Assembly (NCBI GenBank): GCA_902597015.1
Contig: CACJWQ010000002.1
Span: forward strand, 92,383 to 135,440
DNA from: an uncultured Alphaproteobacteria bacterium
GTDB lineage: Bacteria; Pseudomonadota; Alphaproteobacteria; HIMB59; GCA-002718135
Direction of reading: 5' to 3'
DNA: 43,058 bases
Of the stretch, positions 1-15,194 are shown piece by piece. The notes under the pieces are model-generated. The model was not told the DNA's origin. It worked only from the letters and a program-made list of their open reading frames with translations, and made no database searches. Within the stretch, counting starts at the first letter, position 1. Each line of letters opens with the position of its first letter. Both the position numbers and the translations under genes were made by a program.

Positions 1-253
1 CTAAAACTGATACTGAAGTTATGCCAATAGAATTAATATACAGTCTTAAAAAATTTCCTGTAGTCCATGCTTCAATAATATTTTGAAAGACAAATTTTGT
101 TGGTACTCCAAAAGGGTTATTTGTATAATCTTCCATTGATTTGAAAGAAGTAAAAACCATCCACATAAATGGAAATACTATAGTTATTGCAAAAGTTATA
201 AGTAATACATAACATAATACTCTCGCCCAAATTGGAATTTCGTTGATACTCAT
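1..253 (-). CDS. Sugar ABC transporter permease, MalG-type (3' part outside window)
   Basis: Only the N-terminal 84 residues are present; the gene runs off the left edge. The translation starts MSINEIPIWARVLCY, has one membrane segment rich in Ile/Phe/Val, then a 'FPFMWMVFTSFKSMEDY' stretch that is typical of MalG/UgpE-type inner-membrane permeases, followed by the loop and 'YINSIG' that opens the core permease fold. Its ATG overlaps the stop of the upstream permease gene in an ATGA junction, so the two permeases are translationally coupled. It should pair with the MalF-type permease and the binding protein encoded just upstream on the same strand. The ATPase is not in the window. Substrate unknown. 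Confidence 0.85.
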   Translation of the reverse strand, partial: MSINEIPIWARVLCYVLLITFAITIVFPFMWMVFTSFKSMEDYTNNPFGVPTKFVFQNIIEAWTTGNFLRLYINSIGITSVSVL

Positions 254-1134
254 TTTTCAAGAAGTCTTGCAATAATTAGTTGAATTGCAGTTACAATAAC
301 TACGATGAAAAACAAAAGAACAGCGATAGCAGTACCATAACTGATCTGCCCTCTTGAAAATCCATGATAATACATATACGTTGCTAACACTTCTGAAGCG
401 TGATACGGACCACCTAATGTCATTGCATATATTAAATCAAATAACAAAAATGCATTTGTTACAGCAAGTATAATTACTACTAATGAAATATTTCTAATTA
501 ATGGAATAGTTACAAAACGTATTGTAGCAAGAACAGAAGCACCATCAATTTTAGCTGCCTCAATTAAATCTTTGGGCACTGCTTGTAAGCCTGCTCCAAA
601 TAATAAAATTGAAAATCCTAAATCTCTCCAGATATAAACAGTCATTACTGAATACGTTGCCGTTTCTTTACTACCTAACCATTGTACATTTTTAAAGCTT
701 TCTAAATTAAAATAATCCGCAAATTCATTGATAATTCCAGTTGTTGGGCTTAAAAATAATTTAAATAGAAGGCCAACAACTACACTTGAAATTACAATGG
801 GTACAAAGAAGGTAGTCTGAAACATTCTCCAGCCAAAAGGTCTTAAATTTAAAATTAAGGCAATAGCTAAAGCTGTAAAAAAAATAATACTTACACACAC
901 AAATACAAAGAGTAGATTATTTTGAAGAGCTGTAAAAAAAAATCTATCGTTAAACAATTTTAAATAATTTGAAAAACCTGTCCACTTGATATGAGCCCAT
1001 GAAATACCATTCCATCGTGTGAAACTAATCCAAATAGCTACTAGTGTTGGAGTTATCCAAAACATTGTATAGAAAAAAAATGCTGGTCCAATAAAAATTA
1101 AATGAGCGTATCTATTTGTTCTTTTATTTTTCAT
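250..1134 (-). CDS. Sugar ABC transporter permease, MalF/UgpA-type
   Basis: A 294-residue inner-membrane permease, normal length for short MalF/UgpA proteins without the long periplasmic P2 loop. Six hydrophobic segments are visible, the first at about residues 12-35 and the last at about 265-290. The EAA loop that contacts the ATPase is present: DLIEAAKIDGAS near residue 190, followed by the usual 'IPLIRN'. It lies 52 bases downstream of the binding protein gene, with a 10-bp hairpin in the gap, and overlaps the next permease by ATGA. No Shine-Dalgarno sequence is evident before its ATG, which suggests low or coupled translation compared with the binding protein. Carbohydrate import (CUT1 family) is well supported; the exact sugar is not. 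Confidence 0.9.
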   Translation of the reverse strand: MKNKRTNRYAHLIFIGPAFFFYTMFWITPTLVAIWISFTRWNGISWAHIKWTGFSNYLKLFNDRFFFTALQNNLLFVFVCVSIIFFTALAIALILNLRPFGWRMFQTTFFVPIVISSVVVGLLFKLFLSPTTGIINEFADYFNLESFKNVQWLGSKETATYSVMTVYIWRDLGFSILLFGAGLQAVPKDLIEAAKIDGASVLATIRFVTIPLIRNISLVVIILAVTNAFLLFDLIYAMTLGGPYHASEVLATYMYYHGFSRGQISYGTAIAVLLFFIVVIVTAIQLIIARLLEK

Positions 1135-1144
1135 ATTAAATTTC

Positions 1145-1167
1145 GAAAGGACGCTTAGCGTCCTTTC
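1145..1167 (-). promoter_or_regulatory. Intercistronic hairpin between binding protein and permease genes
   Basis: A perfect 10-bp inverted repeat (GAAAGGACGC / GCGTCCTTTC) with a 3-base loop lies between the stop of the binding protein gene and the ATG of the MalF-type permease, ending 10 bases before that ATG. There is no U-run after the stem on the minus strand, so it is more likely an mRNA-stabilising or ribosome-hindering hairpin than a full terminator. Hairpins occupy the same place in two other transporter operons of this window. Confidence 0.75.
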
Positions 1168-1186: not shown

Positions 1187-2485
1187 TTAGTACTTAGTTT
1201 CTATCAAGTCTAGTACACATTGCTCATGATCATCACCAGCTTGTTGAGGTGTAAGATCACCAGTCAATATACCCTGACTTGCATCCCAAGTATGTGGAAC
1301 ATTACATGCATAATCTTCTAACATGTCAAGGAATGGAGCTGAGCTAGTAGATGTTGCAATAATGTTACTAATATCTTGCATGATTGGATCATAAGCCCAA
1401 GATGAAGTATCATACGTGTATGGAGCTAGAGATTGAGTCATTTCAGACCAATCTTTAACTGCTGCTTCGCTTGTATAATAATCTAGGAATTTTTTTGCAG
1501 CTTCAACTGTACCGTTTTCAACTGCACCCCTAGTTATTGTAAGTACAACACTGTTAATAACAAGCTCAGTATTAGTACCTGGAGCACCTTCTACAGCAGG
1601 AAAAGCCATAACTCCTATTGGAGCATCTGGCGCTCCTTTTTTTATCCTTCCTACTACCCAAGATCCGTTTGAGAAAATTGGAGCGTCACCTGTAAATAGC
1701 AACCCTAAAGCAGTTGGATAGTCATCAGCTAAATAGCCTGCAGTGAAATATCCTTTGTCTAGCAAACCTCTATAAAGTTCCCAAGCCTTAACAGCTGCTG
1801 GATCGTTAAATTTCGTTCCTGCCTCTAAAGTAGGGTCATAAGTTCTTAAACCAATATTTATATAATCTTCAGTACTTAACATCCTTCTTAGTAGGTGATT
1901 ATTATAGTGATTACCTGGCCAACCTTCTGAGTTACCAAAAGCAATAGGCGTAATTCCAGCATCTAAAAACTTTTGAGCAACACCAGTGAAACCACTCCAA
2001 GTTTCCATTTCTTTTGGATCAATACCCATTTCTTCGAACATATCTTTTCTGTACCAAATCAAGTTTCCAATATGTAAACCTTGCGGCACTCCCCAAAGTT
2101 TTCCGTCAAATGTATAAATAGATTCAACACCTGGAGCTATTCTATCTGAAATTGAAGTTACAAAATCGGTAAGATCAACTAATCCACCAACTTCAGCATA
2201 TTGATACATATTAGAACCACCATTGATAGTAACAATATCGGCAGGTGTCCCCCCAGAAAAAGATGTTTTCAATGTAGTTTCATAAGGTGTATTTTCGTAT
2301 GCAGTGTGCACTACCTCAATTTCATCTTGCATCGCATTAAAATCATCAACAATTTTATTTAAAGCAGAGAATTTAGGTTCTGCAGAATGTTCACTCCATA
2401 GAGATACTTTGGTCTTAGCATTAGCGTGAGCAGAAAAAAAAACTGCAACGCAGAATGTTAAGAAAAAATTAATTATATTTTTCAT
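1187..2485 (-). CDS. Sugar ABC transporter substrate-binding protein, family 1 (UgpB/MalE-like)
   Basis: A 432-residue periplasmic solute-binding protein. A signal peptide is clear: positive MKN start, hydrophobic core to about residue 20, and cleavage after Ala-Asn-Ala at residue 23. The mature part starts 'KTKVSLWSEH' and contains features common in SBP_bac_1 proteins, such as 'GGTPADIVTINGG' near residues 78-90 and the late 'FSNGSWVVGRIKK' segment. It is the first gene of a leftward operon with two permeases. A strong GGGGAGG ribosome site lies 4 bases before the ATG, and a GntR-type palindrome lies 40-55 bases upstream, where it would cover the promoter. The protein is less Lys/Asn-rich than its neighbours, as expected for an abundant secreted protein. 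Ligand not identified. Confidence 0.9.
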   Translation of the reverse strand: MKNIINFFLTFCVAVFFSAHANAKTKVSLWSEHSAEPKFSALNKIVDDFNAMQDEIEVVHTAYENTPYETTLKTSFSGGTPADIVTINGGSNMYQYAEVGGLVDLTDFVTSISDRIAPGVESIYTFDGKLWGVPQGLHIGNLIWYRKDMFEEMGIDPKEMETWSGFTGVAQKFLDAGITPIAFGNSEGWPGNHYNNHLLRRMLSTEDYINIGLRTYDPTLEAGTKFNDPAAVKAWELYRGLLDKGYFTAGYLADDYPTALGLLFTGDAPIFSNGSWVVGRIKKGAPDAPIGVMAFPAVEGAPGTNTELVINSVVLTITRGAVENGTVEAAKKFLDYYTSEAAVKDWSEMTQSLAPYTYDTSSWAYDPIMQDISNIIATSTSSAPFLDMLEDYACNVPHTWDASQGILTGDLTPQQAGDDHEQCVLDLIETKY

Positions 2486-2496: not shown

Positions 2497-2524
2497 ATTA
2501 ATAATCAAAGTTTTAAATAAACGT

Positions 2525-2540
2525 ATACTAGTATACTAGT
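2525..2540. promoter_or_regulatory. Putative GntR/FCD operator, site 1
   Basis: ATACTAGTATACTAGT, with inner palindrome CTAGTATACTAG, lies in the divergent region between the binding protein gene (start 2485, minus) and the small conserved gene (start 2600, plus). The core T-A-G-T-AT-A-C-T-A fits the T.GT..AC.A pattern known for FadR/FCD-type GntR operators. The same 16 bases recur directly upstream of the gntR gene at 4536-4553, which makes the assignment much stronger than either site alone. Inference: the regulator encoded at 3822-4523 binds both. Confidence 0.7.
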
Positions 2541-2599
2541 TAAATCAAAGACTATTGCTTTATTTCTTGAGAAATATTAGGATATTTTTGAATATTATT

Positions 2600-2863
2600 A
2601 TGAAAAAACAAGATATTTTAATACTATATTTATCTAATTCTAGCTTGGAATCTAAGGTAATTGGTTGGGCGAGACATTATGGAGATAAAAAAAAAATTGG
2701 AATGGCAGGTGACAATGATAGTCCACCTTATGAAAGGGGTATTGAAGCAATACATGATGGATGGAGATTATTTCAAAGTAGCCAATTAGAACAACACTCA
2801 AAAGGTGATGAATATAGAACGGGATATTTAAAATATGAATTTTTTTTTGAAAAAATAAAATGA
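2600..2863 (+). CDS. Small conserved hypothetical protein (87 aa)
   Basis: I do not recognise a named domain. From the chosen ATG the protein begins MKKQDILILYLSNSSL and is soluble, with a Gly/Asp/Pro-rich centre (GMAGDNDSPPYERG) and an aromatic end (YLKYEFFFEKIK). An in-frame ATG at 2555 would add 15 mostly hydrophobic residues. I prefer 2600 because I recall similar small marine proteobacterial proteins beginning near 'KDILILxLSNSS', and because the longer start lies closer to the operator. It shares an ATGA junction with the dioxygenase gene downstream, so the two are coupled and probably act together. Expression is likely controlled by the palindrome at 2525-2540. Function unknown. Confidence 0.7.
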   Translation: MKKQDILILYLSNSSLESKVIGWARHYGDKKKIGMAGDNDSPPYERGIEAIHDGWRLFQSSQLEQHSKGDEYRTGYLKYEFFFEKIK

Positions 2864-3816
2864 AAAAAAGAAAAAAAAATAATTTTTTATTAACGGATAA
2901 TCAAATGGCAGAATTCGTTTCTAAAGGATATTTAATTTTTGAAAATATTATTGATAATAAAACTAATAAAAAATTTTTAAGTGAAATAGGCAATACTTCA
3001 ACTTCTTTGAACAAAAAAAATGCTGATCAAACTTGGTTAGCAGAACATTATAATGAAATTATGAAAAGTAGTAAAATACCATTGGTTAAAGCTGGAACAC
3101 CATTAAAGAAAGCTTATAAAAAAAACTCTGCATTAAATGATGTTATTAATAATCCAGTTTTATCAGGAGCAATTAAAAGTTTGGTGGGAGATAGACCAAA
3201 GTTAGACCATCATTTTCTACATATAACTTTTCCATCTAAATATTATCATGATGCAAATCAAAAAATATCTCAAGGCAATCATAATGATTGCGTAATAGAT
3301 CCAAGAGAAAAAACATTTGATATACAATTATTTTATTTCCCAACTGCAGTTGAAAAAAATATGGGAGGAACGAGATATATTCCAGGATCTCATTTTAGAA
3401 TGGTGAATGAGTTAGCTATAGCAAGATATCATAATATTAGAGGGCAAAAGCATGTAGTTTGTCCTGCCGGGACAGTAATTATTTTTCATCACAATATATG
3501 GCATGGCGCCGGAATTAATAATTCTAAAAAAATAAGATATGGTTTTAAAATTCGATTAATGCCAACACAAAAACAAGTTAAACTATGGACTAAAAAAACA
3601 TATAAAAATAATCATGATGAAGAAGCTCTTTATTGGAATAAAGGTATCGAAAAAAATAGTATCAAAGAAATTCTTCAAAAAACTGAACCGTGGTTTGAAG
3701 CAGATAGTGGAAGATTAGATATTTTAAACAGGATAAGATTATGGCGTCATATTACAAATGACAAAAATTTTGATGCTGCATACTGGCTTACGAGAATTGA
3801 AAATGATTATAATTAA
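2860..3816 (+). CDS. Phytanoyl-CoA dioxygenase (PhyH) family protein
   Basis: A 318-residue member of the Fe(II)/2-oxoglutarate-dependent oxygenases. The iron-binding triad can be placed: H141-x-D143 (in GNHNDC) and the distal H215 (in IWHGAG), with R226 (KKIRYG) as the likely 2-oxoglutarate ligand. The 'MGGTRYIPGSH' motif at 168-178 is typical of PhyH proteins. Such enzymes hydroxylate or oxidatively cleave small organic acids, CoA esters or sugar-like compounds in the cytoplasm; the substrate here is unknown. It starts inside the stop of the small gene (ATGA) and ends 5 bases from the convergent gntR stop. Its link to the sugar importer is through the shared operator region. Confidence 0.88.
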   Translation: MKKRKKNNFLLTDNQMAEFVSKGYLIFENIIDNKTNKKFLSEIGNTSTSLNKKNADQTWLAEHYNEIMKSSKIPLVKAGTPLKKAYKKNSALNDVINNPVLSGAIKSLVGDRPKLDHHFLHITFPSKYYHDANQKISQGNHNDCVIDPREKTFDIQLFYFPTAVEKNMGGTRYIPGSHFRMVNELAIARYHNIRGQKHVVCPAGTVIIFHHNIWHGAGINNSKKIRYGFKIRLMPTQKQVKLWTKKTYKNNHDEEALYWNKGIEKNSIKEILQKTEPWFEADSGRLDILNRIRLWRHITNDKNFDAAYWLTRIENDYN

Positions 3817-3821
3817 TAATA

Positions 3822-4523
3822 CTAATTTATAATATCTTTATACTTTTTAGTTTTTTTTATAAAATCTGTATATCGTTCTAAAGAAGAAATATGTTTTTTC
3901 ATAGATTGAACTACTTTTAGCATATTTTTAGACGATAAATGTTTAACTATTTCTTGATGATCTTTTATCGCTTGTAAAGGCCCAAATGTATTATCGTCCT
4001 CATGTAAATATGAAATATTTCTTACTCTATCAATTTGAGTATTGATCTGGGAAATAATTTGCCACGAAATAGGCATTTTTGCTTGTACTGCTAAGGTTTG
4101 ATGAAACATATTATCAAAATAAAATACTTTTCTATAATTTTTTTTCTTAAGATTATCTAAAATATTTAAATTAATTTGCTTAAGTTTTTTTATTTGAGTT
4201 GAATTAATATTAGAAGATAGTTGTTCAACAACATTTGTCTCTAAAACTATTCTTATTTTATTTGCTTCACTAATTTGATTAGTATTAATTTTTGATACTA
4301 TGGATTTAACCTGAGGAATGGTATTAATTAATCCCTCATTTTCTAATTTTTTTAACGCATCTCTAATAGGAGTTCTGCTTACTTTGATTATTTTTGACAG
4401 TTCACCCTCAGAAATTTCAGTAAGGGGGTATAACTCGGTTGAAATTATTTTTTCCCTTAAACTGAAATAGATTTGCTCTCCAAGAGATTTTTTTCTATCA
4501 AGATGTATTTTTATTTTGACCAT
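3822..4523 (-). CDS. GntR-family transcriptional regulator, FadR/FCD subfamily
   Basis: A 233-residue repressor-type protein. The N-terminal winged helix (about residues 11-75) carries the recognition signature VSRTPIRDALKKLENEGLI at 48-66. The C-terminal all-helical FCD ligand domain keeps the usual metal ligands D137, H141, H189 and H211. FCD members commonly sense an organic acid or sugar acid, often a metabolite of the pathway they control. An 18-bp perfect palindrome 13 bases before its ATG indicates autoregulation, and a near-identical copy before the sugar binding protein indicates control of that transporter and of the divergent PhyH pair. It lies downstream of the SDR/BKACE pair on the same strand, separated by 130 bases. 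Confidence 0.92.
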   Translation of the reverse strand: MVKIKIHLDRKKSLGEQIYFSLREKIISTELYPLTEISEGELSKIIKVSRTPIRDALKKLENEGLINTIPQVKSIVSKINTNQISEANKIRIVLETNVVEQLSSNINSTQIKKLKQINLNILDNLKKKNYRKVFYFDNMFHQTLAVQAKMPISWQIISQINTQIDRVRNISYLHEDDNTFGPLQAIKDHQEIVKHLSSKNMLKVVQSMKKHISSLERYTDFIKKTKKYKDIIN

Positions 4524-4535
4524 TCAATTTTAAAA

Positions 4536-4553
4536 ATACTAGTATACTAGTAT
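4536..4553. promoter_or_regulatory. Putative GntR/FCD operator, site 2 (autoregulatory)
   Basis: ATACTAGTATACTAGTAT is a perfect 18-bp palindrome ending 13 bases before the gntR ATG. It shares 16 contiguous bases with site 1 at 2525-2540. The rest of the 130-base gap to the SDR gene at 4654 is AT-rich with no other feature that I can support. Confidence 0.72.
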
Positions 4554-4653
4554 TTGAAAAAAAATTATTTTATTTTGGTATGTTAGATTTTTTTATGTAT
4601 AAATAAATTGGATGATTGAAAAAGGGTTTTGGATACCTAATGAATTATTAATA

Positions 4654-5469
4654 TCAATCAGTGTTTTTACCTCCATCTAAGGTAATAGATTTTCCAGTTA
4701 TAAAATCTGATTCTTTTGAGCATAAAAAGGCCGCTAAATTTGAAACATCTTCAGTTGTACATAGTCTGCCTAGCGGAGTATCATCACCGTACTCTTTTAC
4801 ATATTTCTTAATAGCTTTATTTAAGTTTGCTTCATTTTTATAAAGTGATTTAACAATATTATTTGTTCTTTCTGTTACTATAGCCCCAGGGCAAATTGCA
4901 TTTACCATTATGTTGTGTTTGCCAAGCTCCTTAGCTAAAACTTGTGTTAAACCTCTTATTGCAAATTTCGAAGATGAATAAGCGCCGTAATTTTCTTTAA
5001 CATAATCTTTCCCAACTGAAGAAGATATATTTATTATTTTTCCACCATTATTATTTTTAATCATTTCCTTAGCTACAAATTTACATGATAAAAAAGTCCC
5101 TTTTAAATTAATATCATGAATATTATCCCAAATTTTTTCACGCAAACTTATTATAGGAACTCTATCAAATTTTGCAGAAGCTGCAGCATTATTGATAAGA
5201 ATATCAATTCTATTAAATTTTTTATTTGTTTTTTTGATTAGAAACTCTACATCTTTGGATTTTGAAATATCACCACAAACAACTAAACAATCAGAAGATT
5301 TTTTTATTATTAATTCTCTTAAATTATTTAATTCTTTAATTTTTGTTTTTAAGTCATTAACTACAATATTTGCTCCTTCACTTGCAAGCCTCAAAGCAAT
5401 TGACCTTCCAATTCCATATTTACCACCTGCACCAGTGATAACAGCTGTTTTGTTTTTTAAATTATACAT
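4654..5469 (-). CDS. SDR-family NAD(P)-dependent dehydrogenase
   Basis: A 271-residue classical short-chain dehydrogenase. Visible motifs: the nucleotide-binding TGAGGKYGIG at 12-21, NNAA at 93-96, and the catalytic Ser151, Tyr164 and Lys168 (YSSSK). The end 'FITGKSITLDGG' is the usual SDR C-terminus. It oxidises or reduces a hydroxyl/keto group on an unknown substrate. Its ATG shares one base with the stop of the BKACE gene (TAATG), so the pair is coupled. The simplest reading is that this enzyme oxidises a 3-hydroxy acid to the beta-keto acid that BKACE then cleaves; that is inference from context. Confidence 0.88.
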   Translation of the reverse strand: MYNLKNKTAVITGAGGKYGIGRSIALRLASEGANIVVNDLKTKIKELNNLRELIIKKSSDCLVVCGDISKSKDVEFLIKKTNKKFNRIDILINNAAASAKFDRVPIISLREKIWDNIHDINLKGTFLSCKFVAKEMIKNNNGGKIINISSSVGKDYVKENYGAYSSSKFAIRGLTQVLAKELGKHNIMVNAICPGAIVTERTNNIVKSLYKNEANLNKAIKKYVKEYGDDTPLGRLCTTEDVSNLAAFLCSKESDFITGKSITLDGGKNTD

Positions 5470-6335
5470 TAATTAAATTTTAATGGCAGACCAAGTATTT
5501 GTCTGGTTTGTTTCCAATTTGCAATTGGTCTTTTATTAATTTTACAAATATTTGCAGTTAATTTTACTAGAGAAGCATTTGAAGGAGCTAGCATATTTTT
5601 ATTTAAACGAATATTATCTTCCATTCCTGTTCTGGTATGTCCGCCTTTCTTAATACACCACTCATTTATTTTATATTGGTATTTTCCAATCCCTGCTGCA
5701 CACCATGAAGCTTCTTTAAATAATTTATCAATTTTTTTAATATAAAAATTAAAAACACTTTTGTCAGCAGGCATTGCATTTTTGATTCCCATTACAAACT
5801 GAATGTATGGACTTCCAGTAATTTTATTATCTTTATATAATTCTGCAGCTTTAAATAAATGCGATAAGTCGAATATTTCAATTTCTGGTTTAATTTTATA
5901 TTTATTCATTTCTTCAATTAACCAATCAATCAATTCTGGAGGATTACTATAAACCGAGTTTGGAAAATTATTTGAACCCACAGATAATGAAGCCATATCA
6001 GGTTTTATTGATAGCATTTTTCCTCTCTCCTTACCAAGTGAATATCTTCCACCTGTTGAAAATTGTATAACCATGCCATGACAAAATTTTCTCAAACCCT
6101 CTTTAAGTTTAAAAAATTTGTCTGGACTAAAACTAATACTTTCATCATTATTTCTCACATGACAATGGGCGATTGTAGCACCTTCCTCAAAACATTCGTG
6201 AGCACTTTCAATTTGTTCATTAATAGAAATAGGAATATTTTTGTTATGCTTTTTTCTTGGCACTGAACCAGTTAAAGCAACACATATTATGCATGGTGAA
6301 GTTTGATAATTATTTTTTATTTTCATTTGTGTCAT
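5469..6335 (-). CDS. Beta-keto acid cleavage enzyme (BKACE, DUF849) family protein
   Basis: A 288-residue TIM-barrel enzyme. Members of this family condense a beta-keto acid with acetyl-CoA and release acetoacetate and a new acyl-CoA; 3-keto-5-aminohexanoate and dehydrocarnitine are known substrates. Visible features: the opening 'PCIICVALTGSVP', the metal-binding H57-x-H59 in AHCHVRN, the 'GGRYS' loop, and the late 'GGHTRTGMEDNI' with the third metal ligand, Glu. The start could be MTQMK or the second Met three codons in. The gene is the first of a pair with the downstream SDR. The upstream region holds a 12-base tandem repeat and a tRNA-like remnant. The substrate cannot be read from the sequence. 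Confidence 0.88.
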   Translation of the reverse strand: MTQMKIKNNYQTSPCIICVALTGSVPRKKHNKNIPISINEQIESAHECFEEGATIAHCHVRNNDESISFSPDKFFKLKEGLRKFCHGMVIQFSTGGRYSLGKERGKMLSIKPDMASLSVGSNNFPNSVYSNPPELIDWLIEEMNKYKIKPEIEIFDLSHLFKAAELYKDNKITGSPYIQFVMGIKNAMPADKSVFNFYIKKIDKLFKEASWCAAGIGKYQYKINEWCIKKGGHTRTGMEDNIRLNKNMLAPSNASLVKLTANICKINKRPIANWKQTRQILGLPLKFN

Positions 6336-6365
6336 TAAAGAATGGTATAATATATAATTGCTAAA

Positions 6366-6387
6366 TTTAATACCTTGTTTAATACCT
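6366..6387. repeat. Tandem 10-base repeat with 12-base period upstream of BKACE
   Basis: TTTAATACCT occurs at 6366-6375 and again at 6378-6387, 31-52 bases upstream of the BKACE start, and the pair is flanked by AAATTT on both sides. The position suits a regulator site, but AT-rich DNA produces such repeats by chance. Nothing else is recognised in 6336-6417. Confidence 0.4.
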
Positions 6388-6417
6388 AAATTTAAGAAGT
6401 AAACAAATCTCAGTTTT

Positions 6418-6490
6418 TGGAGCGACCGAAGGTATACGAACTCTCGACTTCAACTTTGTTCAGGATTATCAATGCATCCCATTGAACACT
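6418..6490 (-). pseudogene. Decayed tRNA-like sequence
   Basis: Read on the minus strand, this stretch has the order of a tRNA: a D-arm-like TTCAATGGGATGCAT, an anticodon-arm-like CCTGAACAAAGTTGAAG, then GTCGAGAGTTCGTATACC as a T-arm, and an end GGTCGCTCCA. It is not intact. The 5' acceptor half that should pair with CGGTCGC is absent, the T-stem has mismatches, the T-loop lacks the conserved A58, and the anticodon loop does not fold cleanly, so no amino acid can be assigned. It sits beside a broken desaturase gene, which fits a recombination scar at a former tRNA locus. Confidence 0.5.
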
Positions 6491-6531
6491 TTATATATTT
6501 CTAAGGTGTTTTTATTTATTTATTAGTTCCA

Positions 6532-6794
6532 GTGCACCCTTTTTTTATACTTTATCATATTTTCTATGCTGGAATTACACCGAATACTGGTCACGGTGGT
6601 TATGATAAAATTATTTTTAAAATGGAAAATGGCTACCATGTAGATATTACATGCATTACCTTCACCATAAGTATTTTGAATGTAATTATTCATCAGGGAA
6701 TACAACTTTTTTAGATTATATTTTTGGTACTTTTCACGACGGATCAGATATTAGTACAAAAAAAAGTTTAGATAGAATGAGAAAAAAAGTTTAG
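6532..6794 (+). pseudogene. Truncated, frameshifted sterol desaturase/fatty acid hydroxylase remnant
   Basis: Only the C-terminal quarter of a gene is left. One frame reads 'FYAGITPNTGHGGYDKIIF', matching 'IHTTIGAQKGHSGYERLIV' of the intact desaturase-like gene next door. At about 6645 the match shifts frame and continues as HYLHHKYFECNYSS, then FGTFHDGS, to a stop at 6792-6794. HYLHHKYFECNY is identical in both proteins, but the rest differs clearly, so this is a diverged paralogue and not a local copy or assembly duplicate. It points toward the intact gene and their ends overlap by 4 bases. No 5' two-thirds is found; upstream lies the tRNA-like remnant. Confidence 0.8.
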
Positions 6795-7801
6795 CTTTTT
6801 TTACCAAATAATTTTTCATGAGTTACTTTAGTTCCATCATGAAAGGTACCAAACCATTTGTCAAATGGATGTGTAATTTCACCATAGTTGCATTCAAAAT
6901 ACTTATGATGAAGATAATGATAGTACCCTGCACTTGGCACAGATTTACCTGTTTTTGGATTTACGATTAATCTTTCATAGCCTGAATGACCTTTTTGTGC
7001 ACCAATGGTTGTATGAATTCCTTGATAAATAAAATGAATTGGATGTGACGGAATAACAAAATGGACAAGTATAGTTGTAAGGTAAAAAATATGCTCAACT
7101 GGATGCATCGATAGTCCCGACCAAGGACCGACATTTACATTTTTATGATGAAGATAATGGAACCATTTATATAAAAAACTAAAATGCATAATACGATGGA
7201 AAAAATAGAAATGAATATGTTGTATCATTGGTACAAACAAAACTAGCAGAACAAAGTAAATTATTATGAATGGAGAAGAGAACCAATCTTTAATAGGAAA
7301 TAACATATAGTCATTAACAAAACACCATAACATTAAAGATTCATAAAATGTTTGAATAGGCACAGCACTAAATAAGCTCCAAAATATATTTTCTTTAGTT
7401 TGAGAACCAAATAGCCAATTTTTTCCTTTACCTAATGGTCTTAAATTAAATCTGTATTGATCTTTTTGAAAGCGGTAAACATGAAGATAGTAATGCCAAG
7501 CACTAGAATAAATTAATACAAAAATAAAATTTCTGATAAATATTATTCCTATCCAATTGATACTTAAGGTAGACAAAGTTTCGTAAGAAGGAAGCAGAAA
7601 AAGATATGAGAGTAACGCTAAACTAAAATGTAATGCTGCCCATGGAAATATATATCCATCTGTTGGATGAAATAGCCATTTTAAAAATTTTAGAGGTTTT
7701 GGAGGCCAAACAAGAAATGGGATTTTATCATGATCAAGTTTACCAGGGGCCCAACCTCCTCCACTATTTATAAGTTCATCATTATTAATACTTGTTTTCA
7801 T
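6791..7801 (-). CDS. Sterol desaturase / fatty acid hydroxylase family membrane protein
   Basis: A 336-residue integral membrane di-iron enzyme. Three to five hydrophobic segments are visible (about residues 55-75, 85-105, 155-200, 240-260). The histidine clusters of the family are present: HFYFFHRIMH, HYLHHKNVNVGPWSGLSMHPVEH, and HYLHHKYFECNYG near the C-terminus. Members hydroxylate or desaturate lipids, sterols or carotenoids. It follows the sugar-catabolic SDR by 23 bases on the same strand, so it may be co-transcribed with the L-fucose-type operon, although its chemistry has no obvious place there. A broken paralogue lies immediately beyond its 3' end. Confidence 0.9.
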   Translation of the reverse strand: MKTSINNDELINSGGGWAPGKLDHDKIPFLVWPPKPLKFLKWLFHPTDGYIFPWAALHFSLALLSYLFLLPSYETLSTLSINWIGIIFIRNFIFVLIYSSAWHYYLHVYRFQKDQYRFNLRPLGKGKNWLFGSQTKENIFWSLFSAVPIQTFYESLMLWCFVNDYMLFPIKDWFSSPFIIIYFVLLVLFVPMIQHIHFYFFHRIMHFSFLYKWFHYLHHKNVNVGPWSGLSMHPVEHIFYLTTILVHFVIPSHPIHFIYQGIHTTIGAQKGHSGYERLIVNPKTGKSVPSAGYYHYLHHKYFECNYGEITHPFDKWFGTFHDGTKVTHEKLFGKKS

Positions 7802-7824
7802 ATGACAAAATATTAAAATTTAAA

Positions 7825-8586
7825 TTATACACTAACCCAACCACCGTCAATTGAATAAGAGGAGCCAGTGATATTTTGAGCATCTTTAGAAATTAGGAAA
7901 TTTACTAAAGACGCAATTTCTTTACCACTTACAAATTTTTGATTTGGATGTTTTTCAAAGAGTAAATTCTTTTTTTCTATTTCTATTGATGTTTTATTTT
8001 TAGATGCTAGTTTTTTTATTTGTTTTTCTACTAAAGGTGTAAGTACCCATCCTGGACTTATAGCATTACAAGTAATTTTGGTTTTAGATAATTCTAACGC
8101 AATTGCTTTAGTTAATCCAATCAAACCATGCTTGGATGCTACATATGCTGATTTGTTTTCTGAAGCTACTAATCCGTGTACTGAGGATATATTAATAATT
8201 CTGCCTGAATTATTCTTTTTCATCACGGGAATAATATTTTTAGAAGTTATAAAACTACTTGTTAAATTTATATCAATAACTTTTCTCCATTCATTTGTTG
8301 GAAAATTTTCTATTTCAGAAATATATTGAATACCAGCACAATTAATCAATATATCAATTGTTTTAAACTTAGAAATAATTTGTTGAATTTTATTTTCTGT
8401 TTTTTTAATTTCTAAAAGATCAGCTTCAAAATAAAAAATATTTTTTTTAATTTTTTTATAATTTTTTTTAAAATCTTTTTTTAAAGTTTTATCTAAAATT
8501 ATTACATTATAATTTTTGTTTTCAAAATAATGAACTATTTCTAGACCAATACCACCTGCACCACCTGTAATTAAAATATTTTTCAT
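7825..8586 (-). CDS. SDR-family dehydrogenase, probable 2-keto-3-deoxy-L-fuconate dehydrogenase (or 3-hydroxybutyrate dehydrogenase-like)
   Basis: A 253-residue SDR with TGGAGGIG at 7-14, NCAG at 82-85, Ser135, Tyr148 and Lys152 (YVASK). The stretch from SSVHGLVASENKSAYVASKHG to PGWVLTPLVEKQI closely resembles D-3-hydroxybutyrate dehydrogenases as I know them, a group that also includes the 2-keto-3-deoxy-L-fuconate 4-dehydrogenases of oxidative fucose pathways. Context favours the second role: it is 21 bases downstream of the lactonase and in line with fuconate dehydratase and an aldo/keto reductase. The cofactor is probably NAD+, since Asp32 follows the second beta strand. The alternative, a link to acetoacetate from BKACE, cannot be excluded. 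Confidence 0.85.
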   Translation of the reverse strand: MKNILITGGAGGIGLEIVHYFENKNYNVIILDKTLKKDFKKNYKKIKKNIFYFEADLLEIKKTENKIQQIISKFKTIDILINCAGIQYISEIENFPTNEWRKVIDINLTSSFITSKNIIPVMKKNNSGRIINISSVHGLVASENKSAYVASKHGLIGLTKAIALELSKTKITCNAISPGWVLTPLVEKQIKKLASKNKTSIEIEKKNLLFEKHPNQKFVSGKEIASLVNFLISKDAQNITGSSYSIDGGWVSV

Positions 8587-8607
8587 TATTAAAAATATAA
8601 ATGAAAA

Positions 8608-9432
8608 TTAAAGATTGTAAAAATTTTTTGCATTTAATGAAAAAATTTTGTTTTTTTCATCTTCCGAGAAAGAGGAGCAATAATCCATAGCTAAATCAAA
8701 CCAATTTCCATATGAATCTGCCATGGTTAATACGGGCCAATCACTTCCCCACATTAATTTATCTGGACCAAATAAATTGAGAATAAAATCTATATAAGGA
8801 TCTAATTGATTTTTTTTATAATCTTTACCCACTTCAGTAACTATTCCTGAAAATTTACAATGAACGTTATTAGCCTTTGATAATTCAGTCATATCTTTTT
8901 TCCATTCATCAATTTCTGAATTAATAATTACAGGTTTAGCAATATGATCTATTACGACTGGTAGAAAATCATATTTATTTACAAATTTAATTAGGTGCTT
9001 AAGATGATTTGGCCTAACTAAGGCGTCAAATGTTAAATTTTTTTTATTCATATATTTTAAATTTTCACTAAGATTTTCTTTTAACATCCATTCGTCATCT
9101 TGAATATCATGTATCATTGGTCTGAAACCTTTTAAAAAATTACTTTCACAAAGTTTATCAATATCATCCTTAGCTTTATCACTATCTAAATCAACCCAAC
9201 CAACAACACCTGCAATAAAATCATGCTTGGATGCTAGACTTAAGGTGAATTCTGTTTCTGCTACTGTATCCGCTGCTTGAACAATAACAGTTTGGGTTAT
9301 ATTTTTATCTTTAATTAACGGTTCAAGATCTTCTGGAAAAAAATCTTTATATAAAACTTTCATATCTGGAGTCATCCATGAATAATCTCCTCTTGAAAGT
9401 TTCCAAAAATGTTGATGACTATCTACGTACAT
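8608..9432 (-). CDS. Amidohydrolase-family sugar lactonase, probable L-fucono-lactonase
   Basis: A 274-residue COG3618-type amidohydrolase. The N-terminal metal motif is H6-Q-H8-F-W, with H163 in IDHIAKP and D231 in the MWGSDWPV motif, which is characteristic of L-fuconolactonase and L-rhamnonolactonase relatives. It hydrolyses a sugar-acid lactone in the cytoplasm. It starts directly at the end of the fuconate dehydratase gene (9433) and is followed by the SDR, matching pathway order: dehydrogenase, lactonase, dehydratase, second dehydrogenase. Length is normal for the family. Confidence 0.88.
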   Translation of the reverse strand: MYVDSHQHFWKLSRGDYSWMTPDMKVLYKDFFPEDLEPLIKDKNITQTVIVQAADTVAETEFTLSLASKHDFIAGVVGWVDLDSDKAKDDIDKLCESNFLKGFRPMIHDIQDDEWMLKENLSENLKYMNKKNLTFDALVRPNHLKHLIKFVNKYDFLPVVIDHIAKPVIINSEIDEWKKDMTELSKANNVHCKFSGIVTEVGKDYKKNQLDPYIDFILNLFGPDKLMWGSDWPVLTMADSYGNWFDLAMDYCSSFSEDEKNKIFSLNAKNFYNL

Positions 9433-10719
9433 TTATTTCCAATATGTTCCATTATTATAATCAAATTCATTAAGAGAACTATCCTTTATTTTTACTGAAT
9501 ATCCTGGATTTGTTGGAGTTACATATCCACCATCTTTTATTATTGCTGGATTTACAAAATGTTCAGAGCAGCTTTCAGCATATTCACTTAATAATAAAGA
9601 GTGATTGGATATTATAAACTTATTAATTAGATTAAGATGTTGAACATATTCACATAAACCGACACCACCAGCGTGAGGAATAACTGGAGTATTATACTTA
9701 CTTGCTATTAAAAGAACTGGTAATATTTCATTAATACTTGCAATTCTACAGCTATCAATTTGACAATAATCTAAAGATTTATTTTCTATAAATTGTTTAA
9801 ACATAACTTTATTTTGTATCATTTCTCCAGTTGCTAGATTAACATCTGGATGTGCATCTTTAATTTTTTTAAAACCTAAAACATCATCAGGATTAGTTGG
9901 TTCTTCATAAAATAAAATATCGAATTGTTTTAATTTTCCAATATTTTCAATGGTCTCATTAACACTCCATATTTGATTTGAATCTACCATCAATTTATTG
10001 TCATTACCTATTAACTCTCTTACTAATTTACAGCGATGAATATCCCTTTCTATATCTTGACCAACTTTCATTTTAAAATGAGTCCAGCCCTTACTTAAAT
10101 TTTCTTCAACTAACCTTTTCATTTTTTCATCTGAATATCCTAACCATCCTGCTGCAGTTGTATATGCTGGAAAAATAGTGGAATTTAAATCATCTAAATT
10201 TGCAGGTAAATTTGTTTTTTTCTGATTAATTATTTTAGCCGCTTCATCTTTAGTGATGACATCATCAATATAAGAAAAAGAAAGTTTATCTAATAAATCT
10301 CTTGTTTCTAATTCTATTATGTATCTCCATAGTGGCTTTTTATGAAATTTAGAAATTAAATCCCATATTGCATTAAAAAAAGCTGCTGCCGCAAGATGTG
10401 TAACACCTTTTTGTGGTCCTACCCAACGCAATTGACTATGGTTTGTAATTTTTTCCCATATCGATGCAATATTCTTTTCTAATTCCTGAATATCTTTTCC
10501 AATTATAAATTCTTTAAAATATTCTATAACTGTACAGCAAAGATCATTACCCTTTCCAATTGTAAAAGTTAAACCAATTCCATTTAAATCTTCTTGATCT
10601 GTGAATACTGTTACATAGGTTGCAGAGTAATCACAATCAACATGAACTGCATCAGTTCCCAAATTATCTTTTGAAGTTGGAAAACGAATATCCTGAGTTT
10701 TAACATCAGTTATTTTCAT
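9433..10719 (-). CDS. L-fuconate dehydratase (enolase superfamily)
   Basis: A 428-residue acid-sugar dehydratase. Counting from an alternative Met nine bases upstream (10728), motifs sit at K219-M-K221 (catalytic base), D249, E275/E276 and E302 (metal ligands), and H352 in PHAGG. The N-terminal 'DIRFPTS...GTDAVHVDCDYSATYVTV' block and 'QKGVTHLAAAAFFNAIWDL' are the fuconate dehydratase signature as I know it, distinct from mandelate racemase relatives. It converts L-fuconate to 2-keto-3-deoxy-L-fuconate. I chose the ATG at 10719 because it forms an ATGA junction with the stop of the aldo/keto reductase, the commonest junction in this window; the start at 10728 would overlap by 13 bases and is possible. 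Confidence 0.92.
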   Translation of the reverse strand: MKITDVKTQDIRFPTSKDNLGTDAVHVDCDYSATYVTVFTDQEDLNGIGLTFTIGKGNDLCCTVIEYFKEFIIGKDIQELEKNIASIWEKITNHSQLRWVGPQKGVTHLAAAAFFNAIWDLISKFHKKPLWRYIIELETRDLLDKLSFSYIDDVITKDEAAKIINQKKTNLPANLDDLNSTIFPAYTTAAGWLGYSDEKMKRLVEENLSKGWTHFKMKVGQDIERDIHRCKLVRELIGNDNKLMVDSNQIWSVNETIENIGKLKQFDILFYEEPTNPDDVLGFKKIKDAHPDVNLATGEMIQNKVMFKQFIENKSLDYCQIDSCRIASINEILPVLLIASKYNTPVIPHAGGVGLCEYVQHLNLINKFIISNHSLLLSEYAESCSEHFVNPAIIKDGGYVTPTNPGYSVKIKDSSLNEFDYNNGTYWK

Positions 10720-11717
10720 ATTGGGCATCTTTCATCAATTAATTTTTCATTAAGTAAATCTTTCCATAAATCTTCAGGAATAGGAAAATTTAAATAATCT
10801 AAATTTTGCTTTACTTGTTCCACTCTATCCATCCCCAAAATCATGGAAGTGACAAGTTTATTCGTATAACAAAATTGAATTGCTGCCGCGGGAACAGGTA
10901 CCTCATATTTTTTACATATGTTAGCAATTTTTAAATATCGTTGTTTAACTTCTTCAGGAATTTTATCATAAAAGTAGGTAATATTTTCACCAACACCTTT
11001 AGCTAAAATTCCAGAATTAAAAATTCCAGCAAGAATAATGCCTATATTATTTTTTTCAGCAATTGGGAAAAAATCATTTAAAGCATTTTGATCTAATAAT
11101 GAATATCTACCAGCTAGCACCATACAATCAAAATCACCAGCTTTAGCAAATCTTGCACATATATCAGAATCATTTACGCCTACGCCAATAGCTTTAATTA
11201 CTTTTTCTTCTTTTAGTTTTTGAACAGCTTTATATGCTCCGTCCATTGCTAATTTGAAATAATGATCAACCTCATTACCAAAATTGAATCGATCTACATC
11301 ATGAATTAAGCAAATATCTACTTTTGAAACAGCTAATCTTAGCAATGATTGTTCAAATGCTCTCATCACACCATCATATGAATAATCTAAATTAGGAGAA
11401 AAATTTAAACTTCCTGCAAATCTTCCCCTATCTATACTTTCTTTTTTTGCTGGAGTAAGATACCTGCCAACTTTAGTTGATAAAAAATAACTTTCTTCAT
11501 CTACAGTTTTTAAAAAGTTACCTAATCTGTGTTCACTTAAACCATAACCATAAAGCGGAGATGTATCATAAATATTAATACCTTCGTTATAGGTTTTTTC
11601 AAGGATATCATAACAATTTCGTTCATCGAGGTTTTCGAATAAATTACCTAAAGGTGCTCCACCAAAACCTATAGCAGTTAAGTTTATATTTGTATTTCCA
11701 AGTTGTCTTTTATTCAT
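10716..11717 (-). CDS. Aldo/keto reductase, probable L-fucose (D-threo-aldose) 1-dehydrogenase
   Basis: A 333-residue TIM-barrel oxidoreductase with the AKR tetrad D51, Y56, K82 and H139 (IYDTSPLYGYGLSE, STKVGR, CLIHDVD). The 'DTSPLYGYGLSEHRLG' block and the insertion after the STKVGR lysine match the D-threo-aldose / L-fucose dehydrogenase branch. It would oxidise the pyranose at C1 to the lactone that the next enzyme opens. The gene overlaps the ABC ATPase by 8 bases and fuconate dehydratase by about 4, so import and first oxidation are co-translated. Other 6-deoxy or threo-configured sugars (D-arabinose, L-galactose) are possible substrates. Confidence 0.87.
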   Translation of the reverse strand: MNKRQLGNTNINLTAIGFGGAPLGNLFENLDERNCYDILEKTYNEGINIYDTSPLYGYGLSEHRLGNFLKTVDEESYFLSTKVGRYLTPAKKESIDRGRFAGSLNFSPNLDYSYDGVMRAFEQSLLRLAVSKVDICLIHDVDRFNFGNEVDHYFKLAMDGAYKAVQKLKEEKVIKAIGVGVNDSDICARFAKAGDFDCMVLAGRYSLLDQNALNDFFPIAEKNNIGIILAGIFNSGILAKGVGENITYFYDKIPEEVKQRYLKIANICKKYEVPVPAAAIQFCYTNKLVTSMILGMDRVEQVKQNLDYLNFPIPEDLWKDLLNEKLIDERCPI

Positions 11718-13218
11718 GAATATTCCTCATAATTGATGAACTCATTTCTTCATAGCTATGATTATTTATTGTTTCACCAACTACTTTAAAATCTTTCATC
11801 GTTATAATTCTATCAGCTAAACTAATCATTTCAGGCATATCACTAGTTATTAAAATAATTGATGTGCCTTTTAAAGATAGTTCAATAATTAATTCATGAA
11901 GGTAAGATTTTGTTTTTATATCAATACCAACTGTAGGTTCATCAATAAATAATATATCAGTTCCAGAAGCTAGCCATTTAGCTACACTAATTTTTTGCTG
12001 ATTACCTCCAGATAAATTAGAAACGATTTGTTGATATGAAGGTGTTTTTACTTCAAGTTGTTTCACGTAAGGATCTACTTTATTATAAACTATACTATCA
12101 TTCAAAAAAGATAATATTTTTTTCAAATTTGACCAGACTGTTATTCCAGCATTGGATAAAACATCATGCATTAGAATTAATCCTTCTTTTTTTCTGTCTT
12201 CACTTATGTATCCGATTTTATATTTTTCTAGTGCATCTTTTGGGGATTTAATTTTAATTTCTTTATTGTTGAGTAAAATCTGTCCAGAATTAATTTTATC
12301 AAGCCCAAGTACACATTTTATTAATTCCGTTCTTCCTGCCCCGACTAAACCATACAATCCAAGTATTTCACCTTTTTTTAAATTTAAATTAATATTTTTA
12401 TGACCAAGGTCAGTGTTTATTGATTGCAGATCTAATAAATTTTCATCCGTAAAATCAATATTTTTTTTAGATTTAATTATTTGTTCATCTCTACCAATCA
12501 TTAATTTAACAAGTTTCTGTCTATTAAGATTAGTAATTTGTTCAGACTCACAAGCATTTTTACCATCTCTCAAAACAGTAACTTCATCACATATTTCAAA
12601 TACTTCCTCTAATTTGTGACTAACAAAAACTATACTTACGTCTTGCTCAACAACTAATCGCTTAAGTAATGCAAATAAATTTTTTGTATCTTGTGGGGAT
12701 AATGATGAAGTTGGCTCATCTAATAACAGTATTTTTGACTCTAAGGATAAAGCTTTAGCTATTTCACACAGTTGCATTTTTGCAACTGTTAAATCTGAGA
12801 CTATAGTATTTGGATCTATATCCAACTCCATAATATCAAGCCATTTTTTTGATTCTTTTGCAACAGTATTATAATCTATTAAACCTAAATTATTTTTAGG
12901 AAGATTGGTTAACATTAAATTTTCACCAACCGAAAACCTCCTAATTAAATTTCTTTCTTGGTGCACAACTGAAATTCCAGCATTCATTGCTTCATTTGGT
13001 GAAGAAAAAGATTTCTCTTGATCATTTAAAAATAGTTTACCTTCGTTTTGGTTGTAAACTCCTGTTATGATTTTAATTAATGTAGATTTACCTGCTCCAT
13101 TTTCACCAAGAAGTGCATGGATTGATTTTTTTTTGAGTTTAAAATTTGCATTATCAAGCGCTTTAACACCAGGAAAATTTTTTGTAATATTATTAAGTTC
13201 TAAAATATAATCACTCAT
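11710..13218 (-). CDS. Sugar ABC transporter ATP-binding protein (CUT2; RbsA/XylG/MglA-like)
   Basis: A 502-residue protein with two tandem ABC domains, the standard size for CUT2 ATPases. The first domain has Walker A GENGAGKS at 38-45 and a Walker B in LLLDEPTSSLS. The second has the degenerate A-loop GLVGAGRTEL, a canonical LSGGNQQK signature and LFIDEPTVGID, which is the usual asymmetry of this family. It energises import by the two permeases encoded just upstream, with 8-base overlaps on both sides. From context the substrate is probably L-fucose or a related 6-deoxy or aldose sugar. Confidence 0.93.
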   Translation of the reverse strand: MSDYILELNNITKNFPGVKALDNANFKLKKKSIHALLGENGAGKSTLIKIITGVYNQNEGKLFLNDQEKSFSSPNEAMNAGISVVHQERNLIRRFSVGENLMLTNLPKNNLGLIDYNTVAKESKKWLDIMELDIDPNTIVSDLTVAKMQLCEIAKALSLESKILLLDEPTSSLSPQDTKNLFALLKRLVVEQDVSIVFVSHKLEEVFEICDEVTVLRDGKNACESEQITNLNRQKLVKLMIGRDEQIIKSKKNIDFTDENLLDLQSINTDLGHKNINLNLKKGEILGLYGLVGAGRTELIKCVLGLDKINSGQILLNNKEIKIKSPKDALEKYKIGYISEDRKKEGLILMHDVLSNAGITVWSNLKKILSFLNDSIVYNKVDPYVKQLEVKTPSYQQIVSNLSGGNQQKISVAKWLASGTDILFIDEPTVGIDIKTKSYLHELIIELSLKGTSIILITSDMPEMISLADRIITMKDFKVVGETINNHSYEEMSSSIMRNIHE

Positions 13219-14179
13219 CTGAAAAAACCTTTGTTCTTCTCTCTTCTCTATATTCTCTGTATCTATTTATAAATACTGCTAATAAAATCATAAAGCCTAA
13301 AAAAATTTGAACAAAAAAAGGATCAATTTTAAAAATAACTAAAGCTTGAGAAATTATAGAAACTAATATCACTCCAAAAGCAGTAGCAATAACATCTACT
13401 TTTCCTCCAGCCAGTATAGCACCTCCAATTACTGGTGCAGCAAATGAAGGTAACAACCACGAATCGCCAATATTAGGTGTCCCAAGTTGTAATCTACAAA
13501 CAACTAACATTCCACCTATGGCTGCCAAAAGACCGGATATAACATGAGCATAGATAACTATTTTTGTTGAAGATATACCTATTAATTCTGATGATTGAAC
13601 ATTATTACCATATGCTAGCATATATCTTCCAAGAGATGTTCTATTCATTAAAATCCACATCAGAATAGTTATAATAATTGGTATGATTACTAAGTAAGGT
13701 ATAGGGCCAAAGATTTTTGCGTTTCCAAAAAATTTTACAGCTTCGGGAATTTCATAAAAAGGTTGAGCCTCTGTTATTCCTAAATTCATTCCTTTAAAAA
13801 TGTAAAGTGTAGCTAGAGTAATAATAAAAGCTGATATGCCAGTTTTAACGGTGATGTATCCATTTATAAAACCACAAGCAAGACCAATTAATAATCCAAT
13901 AAGAACAGCAGGCAAAATAGACATGCTATAAACTTCCATTAATCCGGTAAATGAAATTGCAACTAAGCCTCCAATTGCTCCAACAGATAAGTTCATTTGA
14001 CCAATTGCAATGATAATCATTTGTGACATTGCCACAACGAGCATCAAACTAACACTCAGCATTAAAACATATAAGTTAAATGGAGAAATAAATGCAGGCT
14101 TAAACAATGAAATTAAAATTGAGCCAAAAATTAAAACTAAACCAAGTCCAAACCAATCTTTTTTTAAAAGTGCGCTCAT
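13211..14179 (-). CDS. Sugar ABC transporter permease (CUT2; RbsC-like), second copy
   Basis: A 322-residue inner-membrane permease with about eight to ten hydrophobic segments. Typical CUT2 features are 'IAIGQMNLSVGAIGGLVAI' near residues 57-75, 'GFINGYITVKTGISAFIITLATLYIFKGM' around 107-135 and 'APVIGGAILAGGKVDV' near 248. The end is charged (REYREERRTK). It overlaps the partner permease by ATGA and the ATPase by 8 bases. The two permeases are clearly different sequences and probably form a heterodimer. Confidence 0.92.
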   Translation of the reverse strand: MSALLKKDWFGLGLVLIFGSILISLFKPAFISPFNLYVLMLSVSLMLVVAMSQMIIIAIGQMNLSVGAIGGLVAISFTGLMEVYSMSILPAVLIGLLIGLACGFINGYITVKTGISAFIITLATLYIFKGMNLGITEAQPFYEIPEAVKFFGNAKIFGPIPYLVIIPIIITILMWILMNRTSLGRYMLAYGNNVQSSELIGISSTKIVIYAHVISGLLAAIGGMLVVCRLQLGTPNIGDSWLLPSFAAPVIGGAILAGGKVDVIATAFGVILVSIISQALVIFKIDPFFVQIFLGFMILLAVFINRYREYREERRTKVFSDE

Positions 14180-15162: not shown

Positions 15163-15186
15163 AAAAAAAGGGGGCTTAATGCCCCC
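15163..15186 (-). terminator. Terminator-like attenuator between binding protein and permeases
   Basis: On the minus strand GGGGGC-ATTAA-GCCCCC is followed by seven T residues, then directly by the permease ATG at 15162. This is a textbook intrinsic terminator placed inside an operon. Partial read-through would give high binding protein and low permease mRNA. Confidence 0.85.
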
Positions 15187-15194
15187 ATATTATT

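What the first reader, a model, noticed from the sequence alone, without database searches (positions are those of the whole stretch)
2525..4553. Twin palindromes define a small GntR/FCD regulon: sugar importer, PhyH pair and the regulator
ATACTAGTATACTAGT occurs at 2525-2540 and 4536-4551, and nowhere else that I noticed. The core fits FadR/FCD operators. One copy covers the divergent promoters of the importer and of the small protein/PhyH pair; the other sits just before gntR. This gives a testable link between a 2-oxoglutarate oxygenase of unknown function and a sugar ABC importer.
Basis: partly seen in the sequence, partly recalled or inferred. Interest (0 to 1): 0.6.

Follow-up and report, generated by a model that had tools for sequence, protein, structure and literature searches.

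The report
Self-regulated fucose-use switch, marine bacterium
Two copies of one DNA palindrome are almost certainly the docking sites of a nearby regulator protein that switches on a fucose-scavenging gene set (importer, fucosidase, sugar enzymes and a little-understood oxygenase pair) in an ocean bacterium; the kind of switch is well known, but this one and its link to the oxygenase had not been described in the papers I could search.

Summary
ACTAGTATACTAGT occurs only twice in the 1.2-Mb parent assembly, even allowing two mismatches (reversed control: 12). The copy before gntR is a 22-bp perfect palindrome. Of 143 genomes of the same order, the degenerate site occurs only in the six holding this gene cluster, only at these two places. 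Site columns are invariant where about half of the surrounding intergenic columns vary. Blind test: FCD regulators fetched across Alphaproteobacteria by protein profile only; 31 of 49 close homologues carry a match of at least 10/14 upstream, against 11 of 826 control windows and 2 of 20 remoter FCD homologues. Operator bases co-vary with the recognition-helix residue equivalent to FadR Arg45. The importer heads a seven-gene operon with an alpha-L-fucosidase, mutarotase, KDG-type kinase and KDPG-type aldolase, apparently the fucose operon reported for AEGEAN169 'Ca. Indicimonas', whose regulation that paper does not discuss. The small protein and PhyH always travel together and elsewhere in the genus sit in other sugar-importer or sulfatase clusters without this regulator. 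DNA binding, repression and inducer are inferred, not shown. New member of a known kind.

The parts
2523..2540 (.). Site 1: GTATACTAGTATACTAGT, two overlapping 14-bp palindromes (2523-2536 and 2527-2540), predicted operator in the divergent intergenic region between the importer operon and the small protein/PhyH pair
   Evidence: conserved in 6 genomes
4534..4555 (.). Site 2: 22-bp perfect palindrome AAATACTAGTATACTAGTATTT, predicted autoregulatory operator 10 bp upstream of the gntR start codon
   Evidence: ACTAGTATACTAGTA core invariant in the 5 genomes that reach this place
3822..4523 (-). GntR/FCD regulator (233 aa), predicted metal-dependent sugar-acid sensor; recognition helix SRTPIRDAL; D137, H141, H189, H211 invariant
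   Evidence: Pfam GntR 5e-14 and FCD 3e-14
1187..2485 (-). Sugar ABC importer substrate-binding protein, first gene of the predicted seven-gene fucose operon
   Evidence: Pfam SBP_bac_1 5e-30
250..1134 (-). ABC importer permease 1 (UgpA/MalF type)
1..253 (-). ABC importer permease 2; continues beyond the window, followed there by GH29 alpha-L-fucosidase, RhaM-type mutarotase, PfkB (KDG-type) kinase and KDPG-type aldolase, nearly contiguous
   Evidence: L003 gene map, Pfam
2600..2863 (+). Small protein (87 aa), no Pfam family, constant neighbour of PhyH
2860..3816 (+). PhyH-family Fe(II)/2-oxoglutarate oxygenase (318 aa); H141-x-D143...H215 facial triad and R226 invariant
   Evidence: Pfam PhyH 1.5e-13
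2520..2548 (-). Weak candidate sigma-70-like promoter of the importer operon, TTGATT-17-TACGTT (TACATT in four relatives), with site 1 filling the spacer
   Evidence: conserved in alignment; below the threshold of the consensus scan

Best explanation
The FCD-type GntR protein at 3822-4523 is a local, self-regulating transcription factor, most likely a repressor. As a dimer it binds the ACTAGTATACTAGT operators. Site 1 lies between the divergent importer/fucosidase operon and the small protein-PhyH pair and would shut both. Site 2, 10 bp before its own start codon, would give autorepression. The FCD pocket probably binds a metal-coordinated sugar acid made from fucose (such as L-fuconate or 2-keto-3-deoxy-fuconate), which releases the protein and turns on uptake, fucosidase, mutarotase, kinase and aldolase together with the oxygenase pair. 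Shown here: the sites, their uniqueness, their conservation, the subfamily-wide association of this operator with this regulator type, and residue/base co-variation. Inferred: physical binding, repression rather than activation, the inducer, and that the PhyH promoter is controlled as well as the importer's.
For: Only two sites in the genome, both beside the regulator. Across 151 genomes, CTNGTATACTAGTA occurs in the six genomes holding the cluster and otherwise once, inside a coding gene of a distant genome. Site columns are invariant, 14/14 and 15/15, against 54/100 and 53/112 for other intergenic columns. Site 2 is kept although the gene upstream of gntR differs between genomes. Subfamily survey by protein profile only: a match of at least 10/14 within about 300 bp upstream in 20/29 and 11/20 homologues, against 9/486 and 2/340 control windows from the same loci, and 2/20 (none at 11 or more) among lower-scoring FCD homologues. 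Homologues with Arg at the FadR-R45 position have G at operator position 5 in 14 of 19 cases; those without Arg never do, 0 of 13 (Fisher p = 3e-5); this regulator has Arg and its site has G. Several homologues carrying the operator adjoin UxuA, fructuronate-reductase-like, KDG-kinase-like and TRAP genes, which fits a sugar-acid ligand. FadR-subfamily operators are TKGT/ACMA, with 2-nt spacing in UxuR, GntR and others, and single sites in divergons usually control both sides (PMC4494728).
Against: No binding or expression data exist. The assembly is 66.7% complete, so further sites could be missing, although G134 (84% complete) also has only these two places. The sites are inherited together with the genes, so co-occurrence within the genus is not six independent events, and the homologues in the survey are phylogenetically related. 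Hexamers around site 1 are poor sigma-70 matches, and no clear promoter for the PhyH side was found. The other fucose genes in the window (4654-16223) carry no such site, so coordination of the whole pathway is incomplete.
Confidence: 0.86

Rival explanations
1. The palindromes are operators of this regulator, but site 1 controls only the importer/fucosidase operon; the small protein-PhyH pair is expressed from an independent promoter and merely lies beside it.
For: In dozens of relatives the pair occurs without this regulator and without the motif. The conserved hexamers around site 1 point towards the importer. No convincing PhyH-side promoter overlaps the site.
Against: The site lies near the middle of a 114-bp divergent spacer, the arrangement in which single FadR-family sites usually control both sides (PMC4494728). 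The oxygenase pair, regulator and importer stay together in all six genomes.
Confidence: 0.2
2. The regulator is an activator, or a dual regulator, rather than a repressor, recruiting polymerase from site 1 and repressing only itself.
For: FCD proteins of both signs exist (general knowledge); C. glutamicum GntR1/2 repress gntP and gnd and activate ptsG (PMC2230225).
Against: Site 1 fills the spacer between the conserved candidate -35 and -10 hexamers of the importer, and site 2 lies 10 bp before the start codon, positions typical of repression (inference).
Confidence: 0.12
3. The repeats are not a simple palindromic operator but AGTATACT direct repeats with an 8-bp period, bound cooperatively by several dimers in the manner of E. 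coli NanR on (GGTATA)3.
For: Both sites read as two or more RGTATA units 8 bp apart; the overlapping second unit of site 1 is invariant in all six genomes. NanR is a related FCD protein that binds such repeats as three dimers (PMC8012715).
Against: NanR cooperativity needs a 32-residue N-terminal extension, which this protein lacks. Many subfamily members carry only one palindrome, such as ACTAATATATTAGT.
Confidence: 0.12
4. The palindromes are chance or structural elements (for example hairpins or a mobile-element footprint) unrelated to the regulator.
For: The genome is AT-rich, and short palindromes such as AAAAAATATTTTTT are common in the window.
Against: Uniqueness in the genome, invariance in relatives, the subfamily-wide survey and the residue/base co-variation.
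Confidence: 0.02

Closest known systems
UxuR and other FadR-subfamily GntR regulators with 2-nt half-site spacing
   Same: GntR winged helix plus FCD domain; palindromic TNGT-AT-ACNA core; autoregulated and next to target genes; several subfamily homologues sit beside hexuronate/aldonate genes
   Different: Only 27-31% identical to the distant subfamily members aligned here; the targets are a fucosidase/fucose importer operon and an oxygenase pair, not uxu genes; no known ligand
E. coli NanR
   Same: FCD regulator of a sugar-acid scavenging regulon; RGTATA units repeated at an 8-bp period
   Different: Lacks the N-terminal extension needed for NanR's cooperative assembly; its sites are palindromic and the subfamily motif is a single palindrome
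Fucose utilization operon of AEGEAN169 'Ca. Indicimonas' (PMC11366302)
   Same: A single GH29 fucosidase in a conserved gene cluster with fucose catabolism genes, present in a minority of genomes of an AT-rich marine alphaproteobacterial lineage
   Different: That paper's main text does not mention a regulator or a dioxygenase; its supplement was not read, so gene-by-gene identity is not confirmed
PhyH family 2-oxoglutarate oxygenases (PF05721)
   Same: Pfam match and intact iron-binding HxD...H residues
   Different: Substrate unknown; always paired with an unclassified ~90-aa protein and associated with sugar importers and sulfatases

Membership tests
FadR/FCD subfamily of GntR regulators | N-terminal GntR winged helix-turn-helix | tested here: met
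   PF00392, 52 bits against a cut-off of 27
FadR/FCD subfamily of GntR regulators | C-terminal FCD domain with the conserved Asp/His metal-binding set | tested here: met
   PF07729, 54 bits against 24.3; D137, H141, H189, H211 invariant against distant homologues
FadR/FCD subfamily of GntR regulators | Operator with TNGT/ACNA half-sites, 2 or 3 nt apart | tested here: met
   TAGT-AT-ACTA at both sites; published rule in PMC4494728
FadR/FCD subfamily of GntR regulators | Binds the operator and responds to a carboxylate effector | not testable with these tools
   needs binding and ligand assays
UxuR (hexuronate regulator) | 2-nt spacing of the operator half-sites | tested here: met
UxuR (hexuronate regulator) | Operator located at uxu/hexuronate genes | tested here: not met
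   the only two sites in the assembly flank the fucosidase/importer operon, the PhyH pair and gntR
NanR | Close sequence match to the NanR model | tested here: not met
   NF003011: 51 bits against a cut-off of 260
NanR | N-terminal extension of about 32 residues required for cooperative binding | tested here: not met
   the GntR domain match starts at residue 15; requirement from PMC8012715
PhyH oxygenases | PhyH domain with HxD...H iron site | tested here: met
   PF05721, 51.9 bits against 22; H141, D143, H215, R226 invariant in 11 sequences
PhyH oxygenases | Oxidation of phytanoyl-CoA or another identified substrate | not testable with these tools
   needs enzyme assays; structure prediction also failed (pLDDT 32)

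The most novel reading that the evidence does not exclude
The ~90-aa protein and its PhyH partner form a previously unrecognised two-part 2-oxoglutarate oxygenase that removes or modifies a blocking group (for example a methyl or sulfate-linked substituent) on imported marine sugars. Here it is switched on together with fucoside import by a sugar-acid-sensing FCD regulator, and in sister genomes it is built into other sulfatase/importer operons.
Probability: 0.3. Interest if true: 0.65.

Novelty: new member of a known kind. Interest (0 to 1): 0.43.

Why it matters
It gives a cheap, well-defined test system for how a streamlined open-ocean bacterium controls fucose scavenging, a trait reported for AEGEAN169 without any discussion of regulation. 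It ties an orphan oxygenase pair to sugar uptake through two independent lines, a shared regulator here and shared operons in relatives. The survey also yields an operator (ACTNRTATRYTAGT) and a hint of a recognition code for a whole subfamily of alphaproteobacterial sugar-acid regulators, which can be used to annotate other genomes.

Tried and rejected
Chance occurrence: rejected by the own-genome scan and its reversed control. The single extra hit in a distant genome (G150) lies inside a coding gene and was treated as chance. Structure prediction of the PhyH protein (pLDDT 32) and the small protein (pLDDT 56) was too poor to interpret, so no fold search was made. Literature search for the operator strings found no relevant paper; the PMC library is incomplete and RegPrecise could not be queried, so 'not described' is a limited statement. 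A residue-35-to-base relation (FadR Arg35 position) showed no simple pattern beyond the absence of Arg among sites scoring at least 10; the position-45 relation did. ORF calls in the GC-rich distant loci are approximate; only the ten proteins scanned have confirmed families, and other neighbour labels there (UxaC-like, IlvD/Edd-type, ManD-like) are read from sequence by eye.

Full report
What was claimed and what is there. Allowing three mismatches, no third place in the window matches the 16-mer, and the parent assembly (G000, 1.2 Mb, 66.7% complete) holds CTAGTATACTAG only at these two places. With up to two mismatches ACTAGTATACTAGT is still found only there, while the reversed control pattern occurs 12 times. 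Site 2 extends to a 22-bp perfect palindrome at 4534-4555, the longest in the window; site 1 is a pair of overlapping 14-bp palindromes.

Gene context. The regulator has GntR and FCD domains and PhyH is a true Pfam match. Leftward, the importer operon continues beyond the window: binding protein, two permeases, GH29 alpha-L-fucosidase, RhaM-type mutarotase, PfkB kinase closest to 2-dehydro-3-deoxygluconokinase, and a KDPG-type aldolase, with overlaps or gaps of at most about 50 bp. To the right in the window lie further sugar-acid genes, including a fuconolactonase-like amidohydrolase and an enolase-superfamily dehydratase. They carry no matching site. A fucose operon with a single GH29 gene and conserved gene order is reported for about 20% of 'Ca. 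Indicimonas' (AEGEAN169) genomes, with no regulator or dioxygenase mentioned in the main text (PMC11366302).

Conservation. Regulator orthologues were found in five other genomes of the genus, four at 91-99% identity and one partial at 78%. All keep site 1, and all whose contig reaches it keep site 2. In 151 genomes searched, CTNGTATACTAGTA occurs in exactly the six genomes with the cluster, plus one hit inside a coding gene of a distant genome. In the intergenic alignments the 14-bp core of site 1 and the 15-bp core of site 2 are fully invariant, while only 54/100 and 53/112 of the other intergenic columns are; these are also the longest invariant runs. The gene upstream of gntR differs: a divergent 330-aa fatty-acid-hydroxylase-like gene in three relatives, a different hydroxylase gene in the fourth, and an SDR/BKACE pair in the window; yet site 2 stays.

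Blind test of the regulator-operator link. A profile of the regulator (window and genus orthologues plus three distant homologues, fetched before their operators were examined) was used to fetch homologues from 376 alphaproteobacterial genomes. Scoring the 330 bp around each start for the window's own 14-mer gave at least 10/14 in 20 of 29 top homologues and 11 of 20 further high-scoring ones, against 9/486 and 2/340 control windows in the same loci. Remoter FCD homologues gave 2 of 20 at 10 or more and none at 11 or more. Many hits are symmetrical sites such as ACTAATATATTAGT or ACTTGTATACAAGT in genomes of 60-70% G+C. Homologues fall into recognition-helix types: those with Arg at the FadR-R45 position mostly have G at operator position 5 (14 of 19), those with Gln, Ser, Ala or Val have A (13 of 13; Fisher p = 3e-5, ignoring relatedness), scored with positions 5 and 10 left out of the match. 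The window protein has Arg (SRTP) and its site has GTATAC. This is the strongest evidence that the palindrome is the cognate operator.

Mechanism. Published rules say FadR-subfamily operators are TKGT/ACMA pairs, 2 nt apart in groups such as UxuR and GntR, that a single site in a divergent spacer usually serves both operons, and that these proteins sense carboxylates (PMC4494728). Site 1 sits near the middle of the 114-bp spacer and fills the gap between weak but conserved hexamers of an importer promoter, TTGATT-17-TACATT in four relatives and TACGTT in the window; these hexamers do not reach the consensus-scan threshold. Site 2 ends 10 bp before the gntR start codon. Both positions suit repression. 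Several homologues that carry the operator adjoin UxuA, mannitol-dehydrogenase-type (fructuronate-reductase-like), PfkB kinase, enolase-superfamily and TRAP genes, so the ligand class is probably sugar acids; for this operon, a fucose-derived acid is the natural candidate. Binding, sign and ligand are inferred.

The oxygenase pair. The 87-aa protein and PhyH genes overlap by 4 bp and stay together in all six genomes, and PhyH relatives of about 55% identity occur in some 40 other genomes of the genus. In the eight such loci examined the PhyH relative again has its small partner next to it; they lie beside other sugar ABC importers and, in most, sulfatases, and in four of them directly behind two permeases (one sulfatase confirmed by Pfam). 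The pair also occurs in an unrelated GC-rich alphaproteobacterium. Iron-binding residues are intact. So the oxygenase-importer link does not rest on the palindrome alone. Whether site 1 controls the pair here is likely but unproven.

Verdict. A real, conserved, self-regulated divergon of the FadR/FCD kind; a new member of a known kind with a useful bearing on an orphan oxygenase and on the regulation of fucose scavenging.

Noticed in passing
window 4618-4677 and 6460-6791: Remnants of a 330-aa fatty-acid-hydroxylase-like gene (with stop codons) flank the SDR and BKACE genes at 4654-6335; the gene is intact and divergent from gntR in three relatives (L049-L051). The two-gene cassette appears to have been inserted into or to have replaced it.
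   Followed up: yes
L054-L061 (genus relatives) and L084:7848-9034: The small protein-PhyH pair recurs outside this regulon, beside sulfatases and other sugar ABC importers in the genus, and in an unrelated GC-rich alphaproteobacterium.
   Followed up: partly
L088-L136, regulator upstream regions: Recognition-helix types of this FCD subfamily track operator variants: SRTP often with GTATAC, SRQP mostly with GTATGG, S[QSAV]TP with AATATT or AATGCATT. This looks like a usable recognition code, with several exceptions.
   Followed up: partly
window 1145-1167: A 10-pair hairpin (GAAAGGACGCTTAGCGTCCTTTC) lies between the binding-protein gene and the first permease gene, possibly limiting read-through or protecting the upstream message.
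   Followed up: no
window 8608-16223: A second, ribose-type ABC importer with fuconolactonase-like, dehydratase and aldo-keto reductase genes lies on the same strand; its upstream region has no operator match, so it must be controlled in another way.
   Followed up: no
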